The notes below the pieces were generated by a model. The model was not told where the DNA came from, made no database searches, and saw only the letters and a program-made list of their open reading frames with translations. A DNA stretch of 64,000 nt from Gammaproteobacteria bacterium (GTDB lineage Bacteria; Pseudomonadota; Gammaproteobacteria; DSM-19610), in the NCBI GenBank assembly GCA_011374975.1, contig DRNU01000225.1, positions 1-64,000 of the forward strand, written 5' to 3'. The translations under genes were made by a program, and so were the position numbers. Below are positions 3,456-13,596 of this stretch, one piece after another; the stretch's first letter is position 1; each line of letters opens with the position of its first letter.

Positions 3456-3782
3456 GTGCATGACACAGGGACTGGAATAATACTCAACTATCCGCTTTTT
3501 GCATCGAGCAAGCGTATCCGGGCGGCCGCCAGGAATGCGCCACCGTTAAAGAAAGGCCACAGGGGGTACGGGGTGGCCCTTCTCCAGGGGGCGTTGATCG
3601 ACCTGGGCTACAAGCTGCCTCTTATAGAAGAGTCTGTTGAAATCAAGGATGCCTTCATGGGCGATTTCCACTGCCAGGGTCTGGCGAAAGAGTACAACGA
3701 GATCGGCTCTTTCAGTAAAACATTTGTCTGGAAGCATGGCGAAGCGATTCCTGCCGGGCAAATAACGCCGAAATCACGCTAG
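3456..3782 (+). CDS. Short protein with partial peptidoglycan-binding-like segment (PPLKKGHRGYGVALLQGALIDLGYKLP); possibly truncated T6SS cargo/accessory protein
   Basis: 108 aa ORF directly after clpV; only the first part of a PG_binding_1-like repeat is recognisable. Confidence 0.5.
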   Translation: MHDTGTGIILNYPLFASSKRIRAAARNAPPLKKGHRGYGVALLQGALIDLGYKLPLIEESVEIKDAFMGDFHCQGLAKEYNEIGSFSKTFVWKHGEAIPAGQITPKSR

Positions 3783-3802
3783 TGGAAAGCATGCGAGGGT
3801 CT

Positions 3803-4243
3803 ATGAAAATATCTGGAATACTCATCCTGTCACTCCTGCTGGCACTGGTAGCGTGTGATGGGGCAAGCGATAAGGGAACCGGCACAATGAATACGATCAA
3901 CCTCTCCGAATGGGAACGCAAAATGCACGTCACATTTCCCGAAGACACCCGGGCCCTGGGGCTTCGGGTCGAGCCCGGGATGGACGACGCAGCCTACCTG
4001 AAAGTGCGCATGCCGGTACGGGCCTGGGAGAAATTCCTTGAAGAATCCCCTGTCGATCCGCAGGATCTGGACACCGCAAAACGGTTCTTCCTCGGTGATG
4101 ACGACGACTGGTGGGATCCCGGTAAACCGGCGGAACTGCCCACAGCCCAGGCGAACCTGCCGGATGGCAGTGTTTTAAATCTTGGTGTGGATCTGTCCGG
4201 GGCGACTGAGGCCACGGTTTATCTCATGTGGCACCAGCGTTGA
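3803..4243 (+). CDS. Putative lipoprotein of unknown function
   Basis: MKISGILILSLLLALVACDGASD: signal peptide with lipobox (LVAC); upstream in-frame GTG at 3782 also possible. Confidence 0.65.
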   Translation: MKISGILILSLLLALVACDGASDKGTGTMNTINLSEWERKMHVTFPEDTRALGLRVEPGMDDAAYLKVRMPVRAWEKFLEESPVDPQDLDTAKRFFLGDDDDWWDPGKPAELPTAQANLPDGSVLNLGVDLSGATEATVYLMWHQR

Positions 4244-4292: not shown

Positions 4293-5816
4293 TTACCATT
4301 GTCCGGCCAGTGCAGGGCTGGTTTCTGAAACAGACTGAAAACGTGGCAGTCGCACACTGTTGGTATTTTTCAGGCTGACCAGTGGTATCAGGCCCAGCTG
4401 CAGAATACGGTCTATTGCTGTCTCTGACAGAAAAACCTCGCTACACGGGGTGAGCGTCCATTCTCCGTTCTCCTGGTAGCTGTAGGCCGGTAACTCACCG
4501 ATATCCTGCACGTCATCCGGTTGCATCCGCCAGCCCCGTTCGGTAAATGCCCGGGCGATCAACCGGGCGACGGCGAAGGCCGGGTTCCCCCACAGCAGCT
4601 GGTTTGTATTCCCGGGTTCTGTTATCTCCTCGAACGCAAACAGTTCAAGCTCGTCAGTGTTTTCACCATAGGGCAGGCGCATCAGCAGGCGCGGAAGTGC
4701 CAGCCCGATCCAGGGAGCGACCGGGCTTTGTCGCAGTGCCTGCCAGTTGTCTGATTCCTGTTCTGCGGGCTTCCAGTCACGCGGGTCCGGTGTCGCGGGG
4801 AGAGACCGGCAGCCGAGAATACCCGGGCTCGCGGCAGCCAGGAGCGGGCCCCCGGCCTGCGCTGCAACGGTGCCCAGTGCGGCAAGCACGGCAACATCTT
4901 CGGGGGACGCGTCAAAGGTATATGCCCCTACGATCAGTGACCAGGGTGAATTGCCGGGTGTTCTGCTGCCCTGCGTAACAAGCCGTTGAAACAGCCCGGA
5001 CTGCTCCAGGTCATCACCGGCCTGTTGAAAATCGCTCAACAGTTCATCCCTGGAAACATCACAGGCGAACAGTTTCAGGTTTTCATCCAGCTCTGTACGT
5101 CTTGCCAGGAAATCAAGCCCGCGCCACAGGGCTTCCAGGGCCCTGAATTCAGGATGCTGCAGGATTTGTCGCATCAGGTCACTGATCGCGTCTTCGGCGG
5201 CAGTCGTGTAGACGCGTTGTTCCGGTGCGGTTTCCGGTACTATCTGGTCTTTAATGGCTTCGCTGATCAGCTGTTCAACAGCGGAATGCGCATGCCGGGC
5301 GGGAGGGGATTCTTCTGTTGCAGCCGAACGGCCCAGAAGGCGTTCAAAGGTCGCGCTGTCGTCTTCCCCGCTGGCTGCAACTGTTGAGCGGGTTGACTCC
5401 TGCGTGGAGTTTGCAGTGATTGGCGGGCGGTGTATGGCGCGCAGTTGTGCGGCAGCTTCCGGGAATGTTGCGTTATCCGACAGGCGCCGGACGATATCAC
5501 GGAGTTCGTCAAAGACCGGCAGCCGCCGGTACAGACTGTCGGGATGGAAATCATCCATGGCCGAAAAAGTAACCGGCACCATCAGGCCATTCTCCAGCTG
5601 CAGGTCGAGTGTGGGCGTGAACTGCCCGGGCAGTTGGTCCAGGCTGTCGGGGTCAACCGGGTAGATCCGGCGTTCAGGCAGCGGGGTTCCTTCAGGCCGG
5701 GTCGATGAGGCCGAAAAATTGCCCAGTACCAGAATCTGCATGGGGTCAGTCTCGCGGGGAGCGGGTGTTCCGCGCGACGAGGAAAACCCGAAGCTGAATT
5801 CGATACGACCACCCAT
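4293..5816 (-). CDS. T6SS contractile sheath-like protein: TssB-like N-terminus fused to TssC-like C-terminus
   Basis: N-term ILVLGNFSA...FSAMDDFHPDSLYRRLPVFDELRDIVRRL (TssB-like); C-term LMRQILQHPEFRALEALWRGLDFL...SPWSLIVGAYTFDASPEDVAVLAALGTVAAQAGGPLLAAASPGILG (TssC/VipB-like); 507 aa. Confidence 0.8.
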   Translation of the reverse strand: MGGRIEFSFGFSSSRGTPAPRETDPMQILVLGNFSASSTRPEGTPLPERRIYPVDPDSLDQLPGQFTPTLDLQLENGLMVPVTFSAMDDFHPDSLYRRLPVFDELRDIVRRLSDNATFPEAAAQLRAIHRPPITANSTQESTRSTVAASGEDDSATFERLLGRSAATEESPPARHAHSAVEQLISEAIKDQIVPETAPEQRVYTTAAEDAISDLMRQILQHPEFRALEALWRGLDFLARRTELDENLKLFACDVSRDELLSDFQQAGDDLEQSGLFQRLVTQGSRTPGNSPWSLIVGAYTFDASPEDVAVLAALGTVAAQAGGPLLAAASPGILGCRSLPATPDPRDWKPAEQESDNWQALRQSPVAPWIGLALPRLLMRLPYGENTDELELFAFEEITEPGNTNQLLWGNPAFAVARLIARAFTERGWRMQPDDVQDIGELPAYSYQENGEWTLTPCSEVFLSETAIDRILQLGLIPLVSLKNTNSVRLPRFQSVSETSPALAGQW

Positions 5817-6034: not shown

Positions 6035-8179
6035 ATGGCCAATACACGCCCCCTGACATTTAAAACGCCGCTTAAGGATGAACTGGCCATAACCTCATTG
6101 CAGGGGCATGAATCTCTGGGGCGCCTCTTCCAGTATGACCTTGAACTTTTCAGCCTCAACGAAGAAATCAATATCGACGATATTCTCGGGCAGGCTGTCA
6201 CCGTGCATTTCGATGCCGGTAGCGATGAGGAGCGGTACTTCAACGGTATTGTCAGCGCCTTCTCGCAGACCGGGCAGGTGGAGGATGGCGGTGCGACCTA
6301 TCAGGCGACGCTGCGGCCCTGGCTATGGTTCCTGACGCGCGCCGCGGACTGCCGTGTTTTCCTGCAGATGTCAGTGCCGGACATTATCAAACAGGTTATC
6401 AAGGACCAGGGATTCAGCGATATCAGGGACGAGCTGACCGAGAAGCACGAGGCCTGGGATTTCTGCGTTCAGTACCGCGAGACAGACTTCAACTTCATCA
6501 GTCGCCTGATGGAAGAAGAGGGGATCTATTATTACTTTACCCATGAGAAAGACAAACATATTCTCGTGCTGGCGGATTCCGGGAGTGCCCACGAGGCTAT
6601 CCGCAATGATGCGGTCATGTACTACGCTGTAGCGGGTTCCAACCTGAGAAGCGAACAGTGCGTGTCCTCATGGTTTGTCCGTCGCGAAGTGCAACCGGGT
6701 GCCTATGCATTAAACGACTATGATTTCAGACGGCCGAAGGCCGCCCTCAGAGTGCGCGAGCAGATACAGAAAAAACACGCCGGTTCGGAGTATGAAATCT
6801 ACGACTACCCGGGGGAATACGCGGACCGTTTTGAGGGGAGTAAAGGCGAATACGCGGATCTTCGGATCCAGGAACTGCATGTTCAGCAGGACCGGGCCGA
6901 GGGCATAACCGACCTGCGTATCATGTCCACCGGTGGCCTGTTCAAGCTGGACAACCACCCCAGGAAAGACCAGAACAAGGAATACCTGGTCACCGATACG
7001 GTCTACGAGATTTCCCTGTATGGCGACTCGGGTGGCGGGAATGAAATGGTGTACCAATGCCAGTTTACGGCCATTGACAGCCAGACACCGTTCCGCCCGG
7101 GGCGTGTAACACGAAAACCCGTGGTACAGGGACCGCAAACCGCGGTGGTCGTCGATGATGCCGCCGACGAATATGGCCGGGTAAAAGTCCGGTTCTTCTG
7201 GGACCGGGACGAGGATGATTCCTGCTGGGTGCGTGTCTCGCAGAATTCGGCGGGCATGGGCTGGGGCAGCATGTTTGTCCCGCACGTCGGGCACGAGGTT
7301 ATTGTCAGCTTCCTGGAAGGGGACCCGGACCGGCCGATCATTACCGGGCGGGTCTACAATGCCGAGAACATGCCGCCCGATCTCTGGACCGGGGGTATAG
7401 ACAACAGCGTGATAACAGATCACGTTGAGAACAAGATCAACCTGGACGGGGCGGGTACGCCGATAATCCATATTACCCAGCCGTCCGGTAATGAAATCCT
7501 GATGAATGATGACGAAGGGATTCAGGTCAGGGACCACTATGGCAACGAAATTGTCATGGATGCGCAGCAAGGTACGATCAAGATACGTTCTCCCAGCCAT
7601 GAATCTGTTTTTATCCTGGGTCAGAGCCTCTACTTTTCAACGGACAGCGATGCGAAAACCCTTGTAAAGGGTAATGAGACCAGGCTGATTTCGGGAAAGC
7701 TTGAGACAAAGATACTTGATTTTACATCAGAGACTTTTGTTGGCATGAAGCACTCGCAGTCGCTTGCCGCCACGTATGATACTTTCATTGGCCTGAAAAC
7801 CGCCACATCCATGGCAGTCGATATATCCGGGAACAAGGATATAAAGGTTTTCAAGGATAAAAAAGTCGAGCACACGCTTGACGAGTACATGAAAGTGGCC
7901 GCGAAGCAATATGTGAAGTTCAACGTCGACGGTGAGTCTTCGGAGCTGCACCTGACAAAGACAGCCGCGCTTACGGCATCCGGGGCATCCTCCATTGAAA
8001 TCAAGAAAGATGCCGAAATCATTATTTCGGGCAAGAACAAGGTGAATGTGAATGGCCCCGACCAGATCACATTAAGCGCAAAGAAAGGCGAAGTAAAAAT
8101 GAAGGCAGGCTCCAAGGGTATCAAGCTGAATACAGGTGGCAATGTGACCGTCAGCGGATCAAAGATCAACATCGGTTAA
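6035..8179 (+). CDS. vgrG: T6SS spike protein VgrG/TssI
   Basis: 714 aa; gp27/gp5-like: RMLLQYRETDFNFISRLMEEEGIYYYF-type motif (QYRETDFNFISRLMEEEGIYYYFTHE), DEYGRVKVRFFWDRDEDDSCWVRVSQNSAGMGWGSMFVPHVGHEVIVSFLEGDPDRPIITGRVYNAENMPP. Confidence 0.97.
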   Translation: MANTRPLTFKTPLKDELAITSLQGHESLGRLFQYDLELFSLNEEINIDDILGQAVTVHFDAGSDEERYFNGIVSAFSQTGQVEDGGATYQATLRPWLWFLTRAADCRVFLQMSVPDIIKQVIKDQGFSDIRDELTEKHEAWDFCVQYRETDFNFISRLMEEEGIYYYFTHEKDKHILVLADSGSAHEAIRNDAVMYYAVAGSNLRSEQCVSSWFVRREVQPGAYALNDYDFRRPKAALRVREQIQKKHAGSEYEIYDYPGEYADRFEGSKGEYADLRIQELHVQQDRAEGITDLRIMSTGGLFKLDNHPRKDQNKEYLVTDTVYEISLYGDSGGGNEMVYQCQFTAIDSQTPFRPGRVTRKPVVQGPQTAVVVDDAADEYGRVKVRFFWDRDEDDSCWVRVSQNSAGMGWGSMFVPHVGHEVIVSFLEGDPDRPIITGRVYNAENMPPDLWTGGIDNSVITDHVENKINLDGAGTPIIHITQPSGNEILMNDDEGIQVRDHYGNEIVMDAQQGTIKIRSPSHESVFILGQSLYFSTDSDAKTLVKGNETRLISGKLETKILDFTSETFVGMKHSQSLAATYDTFIGLKTATSMAVDISGNKDIKVFKDKKVEHTLDEYMKVAAKQYVKFNVDGESSELHLTKTAALTASGASSIEIKKDAEIIISGKNKVNVNGPDQITLSAKKGEVKMKAGSKGIKLNTGGNVTVSGSKINIG

Positions 8180-8232: not shown

Positions 8233-10455
8233 TTGGAAATATATAATTGTACAGATTATCAGTTCGCTATCCTGAATGGTCGCCTGGGGTTTCCGGGTCA
8301 TAGCGCGACTTTTATCGTAAAGGGCTGTTTTCAGTTAAACAATAACGGGACAGTCCAGCCTGTCGAAGAACAGATTTTTCCAACAGGCGATGAATACTAC
8401 CCGGATGACGATGAGCAACAGGGCAGTATTCGCTATCCCTCTGATTTCTCATATTTCAAGGCGCGGGCTGACATGGGGGTGGTCGGGCATTGTTATGCAC
8501 CGTCCGGGACTGTGGTCACTTCCAGTGCGGTCAGGGTCGCAATCAATGACCGGGCCAGGGAACTGCACGTGTTCGGCGACCGCTTCTGGGAGCGGAAAAT
8601 GGGTGTTCTGGGTGTAACAGAACCGGCACCCTTTGAAAAAATGGAGTTGCGCTACGAAAACAGCTTTGGTGGACAGGGCTTCGAAGCAAACCCGGCAGGC
8701 AAGGGCGTGGCAAAGGTCGCGCTGGAAAACGGGGCGACTGTCTGGCCGTTGCCCAACATAGAAAACCCGCAGCAACGGATCGGCACTCCTGATCACAGGC
8801 CGGAGCCGGCCGGTTTCGGACCTTTGAACGCGACCTGGCAGTATCGCAGGCAGAAGCTCGGCACGTACGATAAAAAATGGCTCGAGAACAAATGGCCCTG
8901 GTTTCCCGATGATTTCGATTCGGGTTACTTTAACGCCGCGCCACCGGCACAGCAGCTGGATACTTACCTGAACGGCGATGAATCACTGCAGTTTGTCAAC
9001 ATGCACCCGGAGATTGCGGATTACCGTACCCGGTTGCCGGGGCTCAGGGTGCGCTGTTTTACACGTACACATTCCGCGGATCCCGCCATCGGCAAGTCTT
9101 TCCAGGAAATAGCCATGAACCTGGATACGCTCTGGGTCGATATGGATGCTGAACAGCTGGTGCTGGTATGGCGCGGCTGGTCCCGGGTGGATTCCGGTGA
9201 AATGGAGGATATCCAGGATATCCTGGTGCTCGCCGAAGCCCTGGACGGGCAATCAATGGAAGTGGAGGACTGTTACGCGGTGCTGAATCAATGCATAGCG
9301 GAACTGGACCAGGACATGGAGGAAGAAGAACCGGAAAGGTCCGCCGTGCCTGTAGAAGCAGAACCGGCTGTCGATATCGACGGGATTATTGCCGGTGCAG
9401 AGGCGACTTCCAGGCAGGCCATGATCGATGCGGGAGTAGACCCGGACAATCTGCCGCAGCCTTCCGATGCAGACAAAAGAAAAGAAGCCGAGCTTCTGGC
9501 TGAGCTGGGTATAGAACGGCAGGAGGAAAATCCCCTGACACGAGAACACATTGCAACACGCGTTCTCAACCGGGAAAGCTTTTTCCAGGAAGATTTAACG
9601 GGCCTGGAACTCGGCGGTATTGATTTCAGCGGGATCGATTTGCGTGAAACGAATTTGTCCGGGATTGACCTGAAGCACAGCAACTTTTCATCAGCAGACC
9701 TGACCGGCGCGGTATTGAATGGGGCGGACCTGTCACGGGTTGATTTACAGGCCGCCTGTTTGCGTGACGCGGACCTGACGGGGGCGTTGCTGACCGAGGC
9801 GAACCTGGCCGGCGCGAACCTGGAGGGTACGGTGCTCGAATCCTGCAACTCGCAGTCGGCGAATTTTGAAAATGTCCAGGCGGCGGAGGCTGATTTCAGC
9901 AATGCCAGGCTGCGCGGGAGCCGGTTTTCCCGGGCCGTTTTAACGGCAGCATCTTTTGAAGAAGCCGATCTCAATCACACAGTGATGACGGGGGCACAGT
10001 TGCAGAATGCCAGGTTTGACAAGGCCACGGCAATCTACGCGAATTTCAGCGGGTCTGATATGACCGGTGCACGGGCTTCGGACAGTTGCGACTTCTCGGG
10101 TGCGGTACTGGGCGATTGCCAGCTGGAGGGGGCGAACTTTGAAGGCGCCCGGTGTATTCAGACTGATTTTTCCTATGCGGATATGCACGATGTCAATCTC
10201 ATCGGCGCTGATCTTAAAGATGCGAACCTGACTTGTGCCGATCTGCGGCAGGCGAAACTGGCCAAGGCCGGCCTGGAGAATGCCAGCCTGGTGCAGGCCA
10301 ACCTTTATGAGGCGAGCCTGGAACAAGCCGTGCTGGAGAAAACGGATTTCCGTGGCGCGAACCTGTACGCGGCTGAATTCCTTGACGCTGAAATTTCGCA
10401 TTCAGATTTTGAGCAGGCGAATCTGAAGATGACCAAGCTGGAAAGGACCGGGTAG
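8233..10455 (+). CDS. DUF2169 domain protein with C-terminal pentapeptide repeats (T6SS-associated)
   Basis: 740 aa, TTG start; N-term NGRLGFPGHSATFIVKGCF...RYENSFGGQGFEANPAGKG (DUF2169); C-term about 290 aa of A(D/N)LxxA repeats. Confidence 0.88.
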   Translation: MEIYNCTDYQFAILNGRLGFPGHSATFIVKGCFQLNNNGTVQPVEEQIFPTGDEYYPDDDEQQGSIRYPSDFSYFKARADMGVVGHCYAPSGTVVTSSAVRVAINDRARELHVFGDRFWERKMGVLGVTEPAPFEKMELRYENSFGGQGFEANPAGKGVAKVALENGATVWPLPNIENPQQRIGTPDHRPEPAGFGPLNATWQYRRQKLGTYDKKWLENKWPWFPDDFDSGYFNAAPPAQQLDTYLNGDESLQFVNMHPEIADYRTRLPGLRVRCFTRTHSADPAIGKSFQEIAMNLDTLWVDMDAEQLVLVWRGWSRVDSGEMEDIQDILVLAEALDGQSMEVEDCYAVLNQCIAELDQDMEEEEPERSAVPVEAEPAVDIDGIIAGAEATSRQAMIDAGVDPDNLPQPSDADKRKEAELLAELGIERQEENPLTREHIATRVLNRESFFQEDLTGLELGGIDFSGIDLRETNLSGIDLKHSNFSSADLTGAVLNGADLSRVDLQAACLRDADLTGALLTEANLAGANLEGTVLESCNSQSANFENVQAAEADFSNARLRGSRFSRAVLTAASFEEADLNHTVMTGAQLQNARFDKATAIYANFSGSDMTGARASDSCDFSGAVLGDCQLEGANFEGARCIQTDFSYADMHDVNLIGADLKDANLTCADLRQAKLAKAGLENASLVQANLYEASLEQAVLEKTDFRGANLYAAEFLDAEISHSDFEQANLKMTKLERTG

Positions 10456-12287: not shown

Positions 12288-13160
12288 ATGGAAAATATAA
12301 GACCGATTTCACAGAACACATTACCGCGCGATTTTGTCGGTGTCGGCAGCATTACATCGGTTCCGGATGAAGCACCCTATTGCATGCTACAGGTGGTGTT
12401 TCAGTCAAGAAGCCTGGAAGTCCTGGCTACCCGTGCCGACGGGCTCACCGAAAGGCCCGCTGTCGGCGATCGCGTGCTCTGCGCCAGCAGCGCCGACGGG
12501 ACTGTGTACATTACAATGATCCTGGAGAAAGCCGGCCAGACCGGGTCGGACGGTACAACGCTTGAGCTGGACGGGGAAACCCGGGCCAGGGTCGTTTCCA
12601 GGAATGGCGGTCGCATCCTGGCGGTCCACAACAAACGTGGCGAGTTGATCTTTGAATACGACCCGGACAGTGACAGGTCCCGTGTGATTATGGCGTCCGG
12701 GGGGCTGGATGTTGCGGCACCGCAGGGCGATATCCGGTTCAGCGCCGGGGGGCGGATACAGCTCGAAAGCCGTTGCGTCGAAATGCTTGCAGGAGGGACG
12801 GCGGGTACACAGGAATCCAGGCTCAGCCTGGGCCAGTTCCGGACCGAGCTGCATAGCGCGAGCCTCGATATCAAGTCTGCCCGCAGCAGGCTCGAACTGG
12901 ATGAAGTCGACTATGTCGGCAAGCAGCTGTCGAGCCGTGTGTCGAGAGGGAAACTGCACTGGGGCAGGCTCGAAACCCTTGTCGACACCCTGATTCAGAA
13001 AGCCCGGACCAGTTTTACCAGCGTCGAAGAACTCAGCCAGACCCGGGCCGGCCGTATGCGCATGCTGGTCGCCGGTGCTTTCAGGTTGAAGGCGCAGCGG
13101 GCAAAACTGAAGACAGACAAGAATGTCGATATCGATGGAGAGCGGATCAACCTGGGTTGA
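12288..13160 (+). CDS. DUF3540-like protein (spike-associated)
   Basis: 290 aa; position between pentapeptide protein and DUF4150 gene; RGELIFEYDPDSDRSRVIMASGGLDVAAPQGDIRFSAGGRIQLES; C-term NVDIDGERINLG resembles the VgrG C-term. Confidence 0.75.
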   Translation: MENIRPISQNTLPRDFVGVGSITSVPDEAPYCMLQVVFQSRSLEVLATRADGLTERPAVGDRVLCASSADGTVYITMILEKAGQTGSDGTTLELDGETRARVVSRNGGRILAVHNKRGELIFEYDPDSDRSRVIMASGGLDVAAPQGDIRFSAGGRIQLESRCVEMLAGGTAGTQESRLSLGQFRTELHSASLDIKSARSRLELDEVDYVGKQLSSRVSRGKLHWGRLETLVDTLIQKARTSFTSVEELSQTRAGRMRMLVAGAFRLKAQRAKLKTDKNVDIDGERINLG

Positions 13161-13179
13161 TACCGCAAAGGAGAGCTTT

Positions 13180-13596
13180 ATGGTCGCCATATTCCCCGCA
13201 TCCACCACGGCAGGCGGAAACTGTTTCGCCATGCCGGACACATGCCTGACGCCGGCGCCCCCCGCGCCCCCGGTGCCGATCCCCTATCCCAATACCGGGA
13301 TGGTTAACCAGGCGAAAAAAACTGCCACCAAGGTGAAATTCGCCGGCAAGCCGGTGGTGACCAAAAAGTCGGAAATTTCCAGGACCATGGGTGATGAGGC
13401 CGGTGTCAACAAGGGGGTGATGTCCGGTATGAACATGGGCAAGCTGACTTATAAGATGGGTACCAGCAAGGTGAAAATAGAGGGTCAGGATTGTATCCGG
13501 CTTACCTCCATGTGCGGTCATAACGGTACCAGCGCCAATATGCCTGCCGGGGTCCAGGTTGCCCCGAGCCAGACCAAGGTGATCGTCGCGCCATGA
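13180..13596 (+). CDS. DUF4150 / PAAR-like protein, stand-alone (no fused toxin domain)
   Basis: GGNCFAMPDTCLTPAPPAPPVPIPYPNTG and GDEAGVNKGVMSGMNMGKLTYKMGTSKVKIEGQDCIRLTSMCGHNGTSANMPAGVQVAPSQTKVIVAP; RBS aaggag before ATG. Confidence 0.88.
   Translation: MVAIFPASTTAGGNCFAMPDTCLTPAPPAPPVPIPYPNTGMVNQAKKTATKVKFAGKPVVTKKSEISRTMGDEAGVNKGVMSGMNMGKLTYKMGTSKVKIEGQDCIRLTSMCGHNGTSANMPAGVQVAPSQTKVIVAP

What the first reader, a model, noticed from the sequence alone, without database searches (positions are those of the whole stretch)
4293..5816. Antisense TssB-TssC fusion inside the T6SS spike island
Canonical sheaths use separate TssB and TssC. This single 507-aa ORF carries a TssB-like N-terminus and a TssC-like C-terminus joined by a low-complexity linker, and is transcribed opposite to clpV and vgrG. 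It could be a sheath-modifying or cargo-associated pseudo-subunit rather than a sheath builder.
Basis: partly seen in the sequence, partly recalled or inferred. Interest (0 to 1): 0.6.

Follow-up and report, generated by a model that had tools for sequence, protein, structure and literature searches.

The report
Sheath-like fusion protein of type VI secretion
Next to the parts of a bacterial toxin-firing machine (the type VI secretion system) sits a gene for a one-piece look-alike of its two sheath proteins that lacks the part needed to build the sheath; relatives in many bacteria suggest an unnamed accessory that may handle the enzyme recycling the sheath.

Summary
Window 4293-5816 (-) encodes one 507-aa protein with a TssB domain (PF05591, residues 25-114) and a TssC N-terminal domain (PF05943, 208-495). 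It lies between clpV and vgrG, on the opposite strand, in a T6SS island whose overlapping contig carries canonical tssA-B-C-hcp-tagJ-E-F-G. It belongs to a widespread, unnamed family: 23 members from Gammaproteobacteria and Desulfurivibrio, plus Alphaproteobacteria and Eleftheria. All 23 lack TssC's gp25-like "handshake" domain (PF18945) and end at the same place, so none should polymerise as a sheath. They keep domain 2 and, in an otherwise variable linker, a short helix aligned with TssC's N-terminal ClpV-recognition helix; its type tends to follow that of the host's own TssC. The family is under purifying selection, occurs with two canonical T6SS classes, and is head-to-head with vgrG in 9 of 23 loci. 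Rhodobacterales plasmid homologues add a 500-670-aa acidic extension with many LDxLL repeats. Best reading: a non-polymerising sheath mimic that binds ClpV and tunes sheath recycling. Anatomy is shown; function is inferred (about 0.45). True full-length TssB-TssC fusions exist separately in small-genome Alphaproteobacteria. Public annotation calls some members "contractile sheath large subunit".

The parts
4293..5816 (-). TssB-TssC(N) fusion gene, 507 aa
5475..5744 (-). TssB/VipA domain (residues 25-114)
   Evidence: PF05591; hhalign with 60 canonical TssB, probability 99.5%
5784..5807 (-). N-terminal arm-like strand RIEFSFGF (residues 4-11), aligned with TssB IEYDVEV; the TagJ-binding stretch before it in TssB (SSQKFIARNRAP) is missing
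   Evidence: hhalign local alignment starts here; TagJ contact residues from PMC4239648
5334..5351 (-). linker motif TFERLL (residues 156-161), aligned with the ClpV-recognition helix of TssC
   Evidence: alignment; predicted helix 153-160 in a disordered linker
4332..5195 (-). TssC/VipB N-terminal domain (residues 208-495)
   Evidence: PF05943; Foldseek best match P. aeruginosa TssC1 5n8n_B
4296..4310 (-). C-terminal LAGQW, a recurring [LI]xGxW end of the family, where canonical TssC would go on into PF18945
5817..6034 (.). 218-bp gap between the divergent fusion and vgrG; possible shared promoter region
6035..8179 (+). vgrG (TssI)
   Evidence: TIGR03361
683..3442 (+). clpV (TssH)
   Evidence: TIGR03345
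3..623 (+). 3' part of tssG; overlaps the tssG end of contig C189, which carries tssA-B-C-hcp-tagJ-E-F
8233..10455 (+). DUF2169 + pentapeptide protein
12288..13596 (+). DUF3540 and PAAR-like genes of the spike island

Best explanation
The gene encodes a single-chain, non-polymerising mimic of a TssB-TssC protomer. Shown: it keeps the heterodimer core (domain 2) and the tether that carries TssC's N-terminal recognition helix, and it lacks the gp25-like domain 1 with which protomers knit into a sheath. Inferred: the tethered helix docks on ClpV, so the protein engages the sheath-recycling ATPase without being a sheath. It would act either as a competitor or reservoir that delays disassembly, or as an adaptor that places ClpV near sheath ends or the spike. 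It would work for the canonical T6SS of the same cell, with expression in this window probably linked to vgrG through the shared intergenic region.
For: Both domains in 23 of 23 members and PF18945 in none, against presence in canonical TssC. Structure model pLDDT 83.6, pTM 0.82, best match TssC1 of P. aeruginosa. In the variable linker only one short motif is aligned without gaps in all members: hydrophobic at column 157 in 20 of 20 sequences, at 160 in 19 of 20, at 161 in 20 of 20; a profile made only from canonical TssC motifs finds it above shuffled linkers (Fisher p 5e-17; the sequences are related, so this overstates). The motif is like that of the host's own TssC more than that of others (permutation p 0.003): class A hosts TFERLL/DFARLI/DFAALL with TssC DFASLL and the like; Desulfurivibrio LLDQII with LLDRII; G705 FLDSIM with LLSQIM. 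The LLD-type motif lies in two separate places of the fusion tree. ClpV binding by this TssC helix is established in V. cholerae and EAEC (PMC4239648; PMC5048182). Co-occurrence with T6SS: 17 of 18 fusion-bearing genomes of the class survey (two with partial fusion genes) have canonical TssC, present in about 70 of 369 genomes. Purifying selection. Subfamily members carry further copies of like motifs in their tails.
Against: In P. aeruginosa H1, the class to which this window's T6SS belongs (TagJ, DFASLL), the N-terminal helix of TssC1 was not needed for ClpV1 binding and the N domain alone was not sufficient (PMC4239648), so the helix may serve another partner. The motif is short, and LDxLL-like helices are common. 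Phylogeny explains part of the motif match. G301 has an LLD-like motif with a class A TssC. One genome (G214) has the fusion but no ClpV over the cut-off or canonical TssC found. No interaction, expression or phenotype data.
Confidence: 0.45

Rival explanations
1. Sheath-end cap or terminator: the retained TssB-like arm plugs into the handshake sheet of a sheath or baseplate subunit, but without its own acceptor strands the protein cannot take the next subunit, so it ends or locks the polymer.
For: N-terminal arm-like strand aligned with TssB beta-1 while the TssC strands 11-13 region is absent. In the P. aeruginosa sheath, TssB1 beta-1 and TssC1 beta-13 are donors to the beta-11/12 acceptor (PMC5807055). 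Mutant subunits are dominant-negative at low level and a TssB linker longer by 2 residues blocks contraction (PMC5797969); by my count the linker here is mostly longer than that of TssB.
Against: The arm is weakly conserved (missing in G490, altered in the LLD group), and the model gives residues 1-16 low confidence. Does not explain the conserved linker motif or the motif-rich tails.
Confidence: 0.22
2. Spike or effector accessory: the fusion serves vgrG-linked cargo, for example as a loading or delivery factor that borrows the sheath fold.
For: Head-to-head with vgrG in 9 of 23 loci and directly upstream of vgrG in Rhodobacterales operons.
Against: Many members are far from any vgrG or T6SS gene. 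Sheath fold and motif have no known role in loading.
Confidence: 0.13
3. A second, alternative sheath used under some conditions.
For: Homology to both sheath subunits; full-length one-chain TssB-TssC sheath candidates exist in small-genome Alphaproteobacteria.
Against: All members of this family lack PF18945, which the full-length fusions scanned keep.
Confidence: 0.04
4. Decaying or chance fusion without function.
For: Fast divergence (25-40% identity between the window protein and other members, against about 76-86% for canonical TssB and TssC of several class A hosts).
Against: Uninterrupted in 23 diverse genomes, constant end point, dN/dS 0.15-0.27, conserved signatures.
Confidence: 0.03

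Closest known systems
TssB/VipA and TssC/VipB sheath subunits
   Same: Homologous core; Foldseek best hits are TssC chains (5n8n, 3j9g, 5urx).
   Different: One chain; lacks the TssC C-terminal gp25-like domain PF18945; lacks the TagJ-binding N-terminus of TssB; much faster divergence.
TagJ/HsiE (ImpE family)
   Same: Accessory of the same T6SS class, proposed to bring ClpV to the sheath (PMC4239648).
   Different: No ImpE domain here; TagJ is a TPR plus ImpE fold and is present in addition to the fusion in this island.
Full-length TssB-TssC fusions of small-genome Alphaproteobacteria (e.g. L174, L181)
   Same: TssB followed by TssC in one ORF.
   Different: Keep PF18945 and full TssB; no separate TssC turned up in those genomes at the cut-off used, so they are probably the sheath itself.
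TssA/TagA class sheath-end proteins
   Same: Considered as functional analogues for an end cap.
   Different: Unrelated in sequence as far as the Pfam scan shows; the window's island has its own tssA.

Membership tests
T6SS contractile sheath subunits (TssB/TssC) | Homology to VipA and VipB core | tested here: met
   PF05591 and PF05943 above cut-off in the window protein; matched by all 23 members
T6SS contractile sheath subunits (TssB/TssC) | TssC gp25-like handshake domain PF18945 | tested here: not met
   Absent in 23 of 23 fusions; present in canonical TssC
T6SS contractile sheath subunits (TssB/TssC) | NCBIfam equivalog cut-offs TIGR03355 / TIGR03358 | tested here: not met
   221.9 bits against 271.5, and 39.9 against 97.25
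T6SS contractile sheath subunits (TssB/TssC) | Polymerises into a sheath around Hcp | not testable with these tools
   needs biochemistry or microscopy
ClpV substrate or adaptor | N-terminal TssC-type recognition helix | tested here: inconclusive
   A like motif is in the linker of all members, but the resemblance is short and the helix is reported dispensable in the H1 class
ClpV substrate or adaptor | Binds ClpV | not testable with these tools
   no interaction data
TagJ/HsiE | ImpE domain PF07024 | tested here: not met
   not in P0001; a separate tagJ exists

The most novel reading that the evidence does not exclude
A general, unnamed T6SS regulator family: sheath-mimic scaffolds that carry one to many copies of the TssC recognition helix and so gather ClpV (or ClpV-TagJ) away from or toward the sheath. 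The Rhodobacterales form, with a 500-670-aa acidic extension full of LDxLL repeats, would be a multivalent hub.
Probability: 0.25. Interest if true: 0.75.

Novelty: new variant of a known kind. Interest (0 to 1): 0.52.

Why it matters
ClpV timing decides how often a T6SS can fire, yet in the TagJ class it is unclear how ClpV finds the sheath. A conserved protein built from the sheath core plus the recognition helix, without the polymerising domain, would be a natural regulator. Public annotation now labels some members 'contractile sheath large subunit', so the family has probably been overlooked and sheath counts may be inflated. It also yields direct tests with pure proteins and a gene removal.

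Tried and rejected
Same-genus and same-family genomes: none of those sampled carry the fusion, so no close-strain comparison. Literature searches for TssB-TssC fusions found nothing on this protein (one query malformed); subscription papers are not covered. Phage origin: no PHROG and only partial, mostly TssC-part hits in phage records. DUF2169 co-occurrence: not general. Alternative sheath and pseudogene readings rejected as above. The motif test on single linkers is weak for several members (p 0.05-0.5 in G354, G249, G490, L007, L008 and others) and only the set as a whole is clear.

Full report
Observation. The ORF at 4293-5816 (-) is real and as described: 507 aa, TssB at residues 25-114 and TssC N-terminal domain at 208-495, with both NCBIfam models matched below their equivalog cut-offs. 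Solved relatives are T6SS sheath proteins. It lies between clpV and vgrG on the opposite strand.

The island. The genome holds exactly one other PF05943 and one other PF05591 gene, the canonical tssC and tssB on contig C189. C189 carries tssA-tssB-tssC-hcp-tagJ-tssE-tssF and ends inside tssG; the window begins inside the same tssG with an overlapping stretch of identical protein sequence. So the canonical sheath genes and the fusion are in one island, of the TagJ type (ImpE domain).

A family. A profile of six first relatives and class and phylum surveys gave 23 full-length members, with a score gap to canonical TssC for all but one (276 bits or more against at most 227); the exception, G167, scores 217 but spans both domains in one frame. 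Among the fusion-bearing genomes of the class survey, 17 of 18 also have canonical TssC (two of the 18 have only pieces of the fusion gene at contig ends); G214 does not, nor was a ClpV over the cut-off found there. Canonical TssC of fusion-bearing genomes falls in two groups of the TssC tree: the TagJ group and a group with tandem TssC genes; other groups of the sample have none. Later finds: an alphaproteobacterium (G898), Rhodobacterales plasmids and Eleftheria.

Anatomy. Every one of 23 members matches both Pfam domains and none matches PF18945, the gp25-like tail sheath domain that canonical TssC of this genome has. All end where that domain would begin, apart from short or tail extensions, many with [LI]xGxW. 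Profile alignment of the N-terminal part with 60 TssB begins at IEFSFGF against IEYDVEV, the arm strand, and leaves out the SSQKFIARNRAP stretch that TagJ holds in P. aeruginosa (PMC4239648). An FHPD signature (residues 90-93) marks the family: P92 is invariant and H91 and D93 nearly so, where the canonical TssB of this genome has FSPA. The AlphaFold2 model has a confident core (pLDDT 83.6, pTM 0.82) and a disordered linker with a helix at 153-160. In the P. aeruginosa sheath, the inner-layer handshake is made of TssC beta-11 and 12 plus donor strands TssC beta-13 and TssB beta-1 (PMC5807055). My inference: without domain 1 this protein cannot build a wall.

The linker motif. In the variable linker one six-residue stretch aligns without gaps in all members: for example TFERLL, TLARLL, DFARLI, LLDQII, FLDSIM. 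It lies where TssC has its N-terminal ClpV-recognition helix: LLDEIM in V. cholerae VipB, EFASLL in P. aeruginosa HsiC1 (PMC4239648). Motifs resemble those of the host's own TssC more than shuffled pairings do (p 0.003), and the LLD type occurs in two separate parts of the fusion tree. Limits: relatedness, small numbers, motifs picked by alignment and eye, one mixed case (G301), and the report that the helix is dispensable for ClpV1 binding in the H1 class.

Tails. L006, G213 and Eleftheria have a C-terminal tail with motifs such as DLDALLASL or ELAALLADL. The Rhodobacterales proteins (L165, L166, L168) have the same kind of end and an acidic N-terminal extension of 673, 513 and 565 aa with 15, 8 and 11 strict LDxLL-type motifs, against shuffled means near 1 or below. 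They sit in the T6SS operon just upstream of vgrG, same strand. The likeness to TssC's EFASLLQKEF is suggestive only.

Linkage and selection. The fusion is head-to-head with vgrG in 9 of 23 loci, 170 to about 1000 bp apart, and next to tssA in four of those. Several others are far from any T6SS gene in the stretch read. dN/dS is 0.15-0.27 in four pairs.

Mechanism and rivals. I commit to a ClpV-directed sheath mimic at 0.45; end cap 0.22; spike accessory 0.13; other readings small. Steps shown: family, anatomy, missing domain, conserved helix, co-occurrence, selection. Steps inferred: ClpV binding, effect on recycling, co-expression with vgrG.

Novelty. No paper in the held library that I found describes it, which does not prove absence elsewhere. 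It is a new variant built from known parts, not a new kind of machine.

Noticed in passing
L174, L175, L179, L181, L182, L183, L184, L189 (genomes of 0.8-1.9 Mb, Alphaproteobacteria): ORFs of 631-664 aa join full TssB and full TssC in one frame; PF18945 is kept in the two scanned (L174, L181); likely one-chain sheaths and the only sheath gene seen at the cut-off used.
   Followed up: partly
L165:18036-21767, L166:16459-19647, L168:8363-11770: Rhodobacterales members with a long acidic extension of repeated LDxLL motifs; the records label them sheath large subunit.
   Followed up: partly
L100-L103, L123, L131, L132, L138, L142 and others: Canonical T6SS group with two tandem tssC genes, the second very diverged in the TssC tree.
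   Followed up: no
window 3456-4243 (+): Two small ORFs between clpV and the fusion without any Pfam or NCBIfam match; the second starts like a lipoprotein.
   Followed up: no
L009:2686-3726, L005:4058-5080, L052:18103-19128: A protein of about 340 aa recurs between DUF2169 and PAAR-like genes in several spike islands; I labelled it ketosynthase-like by eye only.
   Followed up: no
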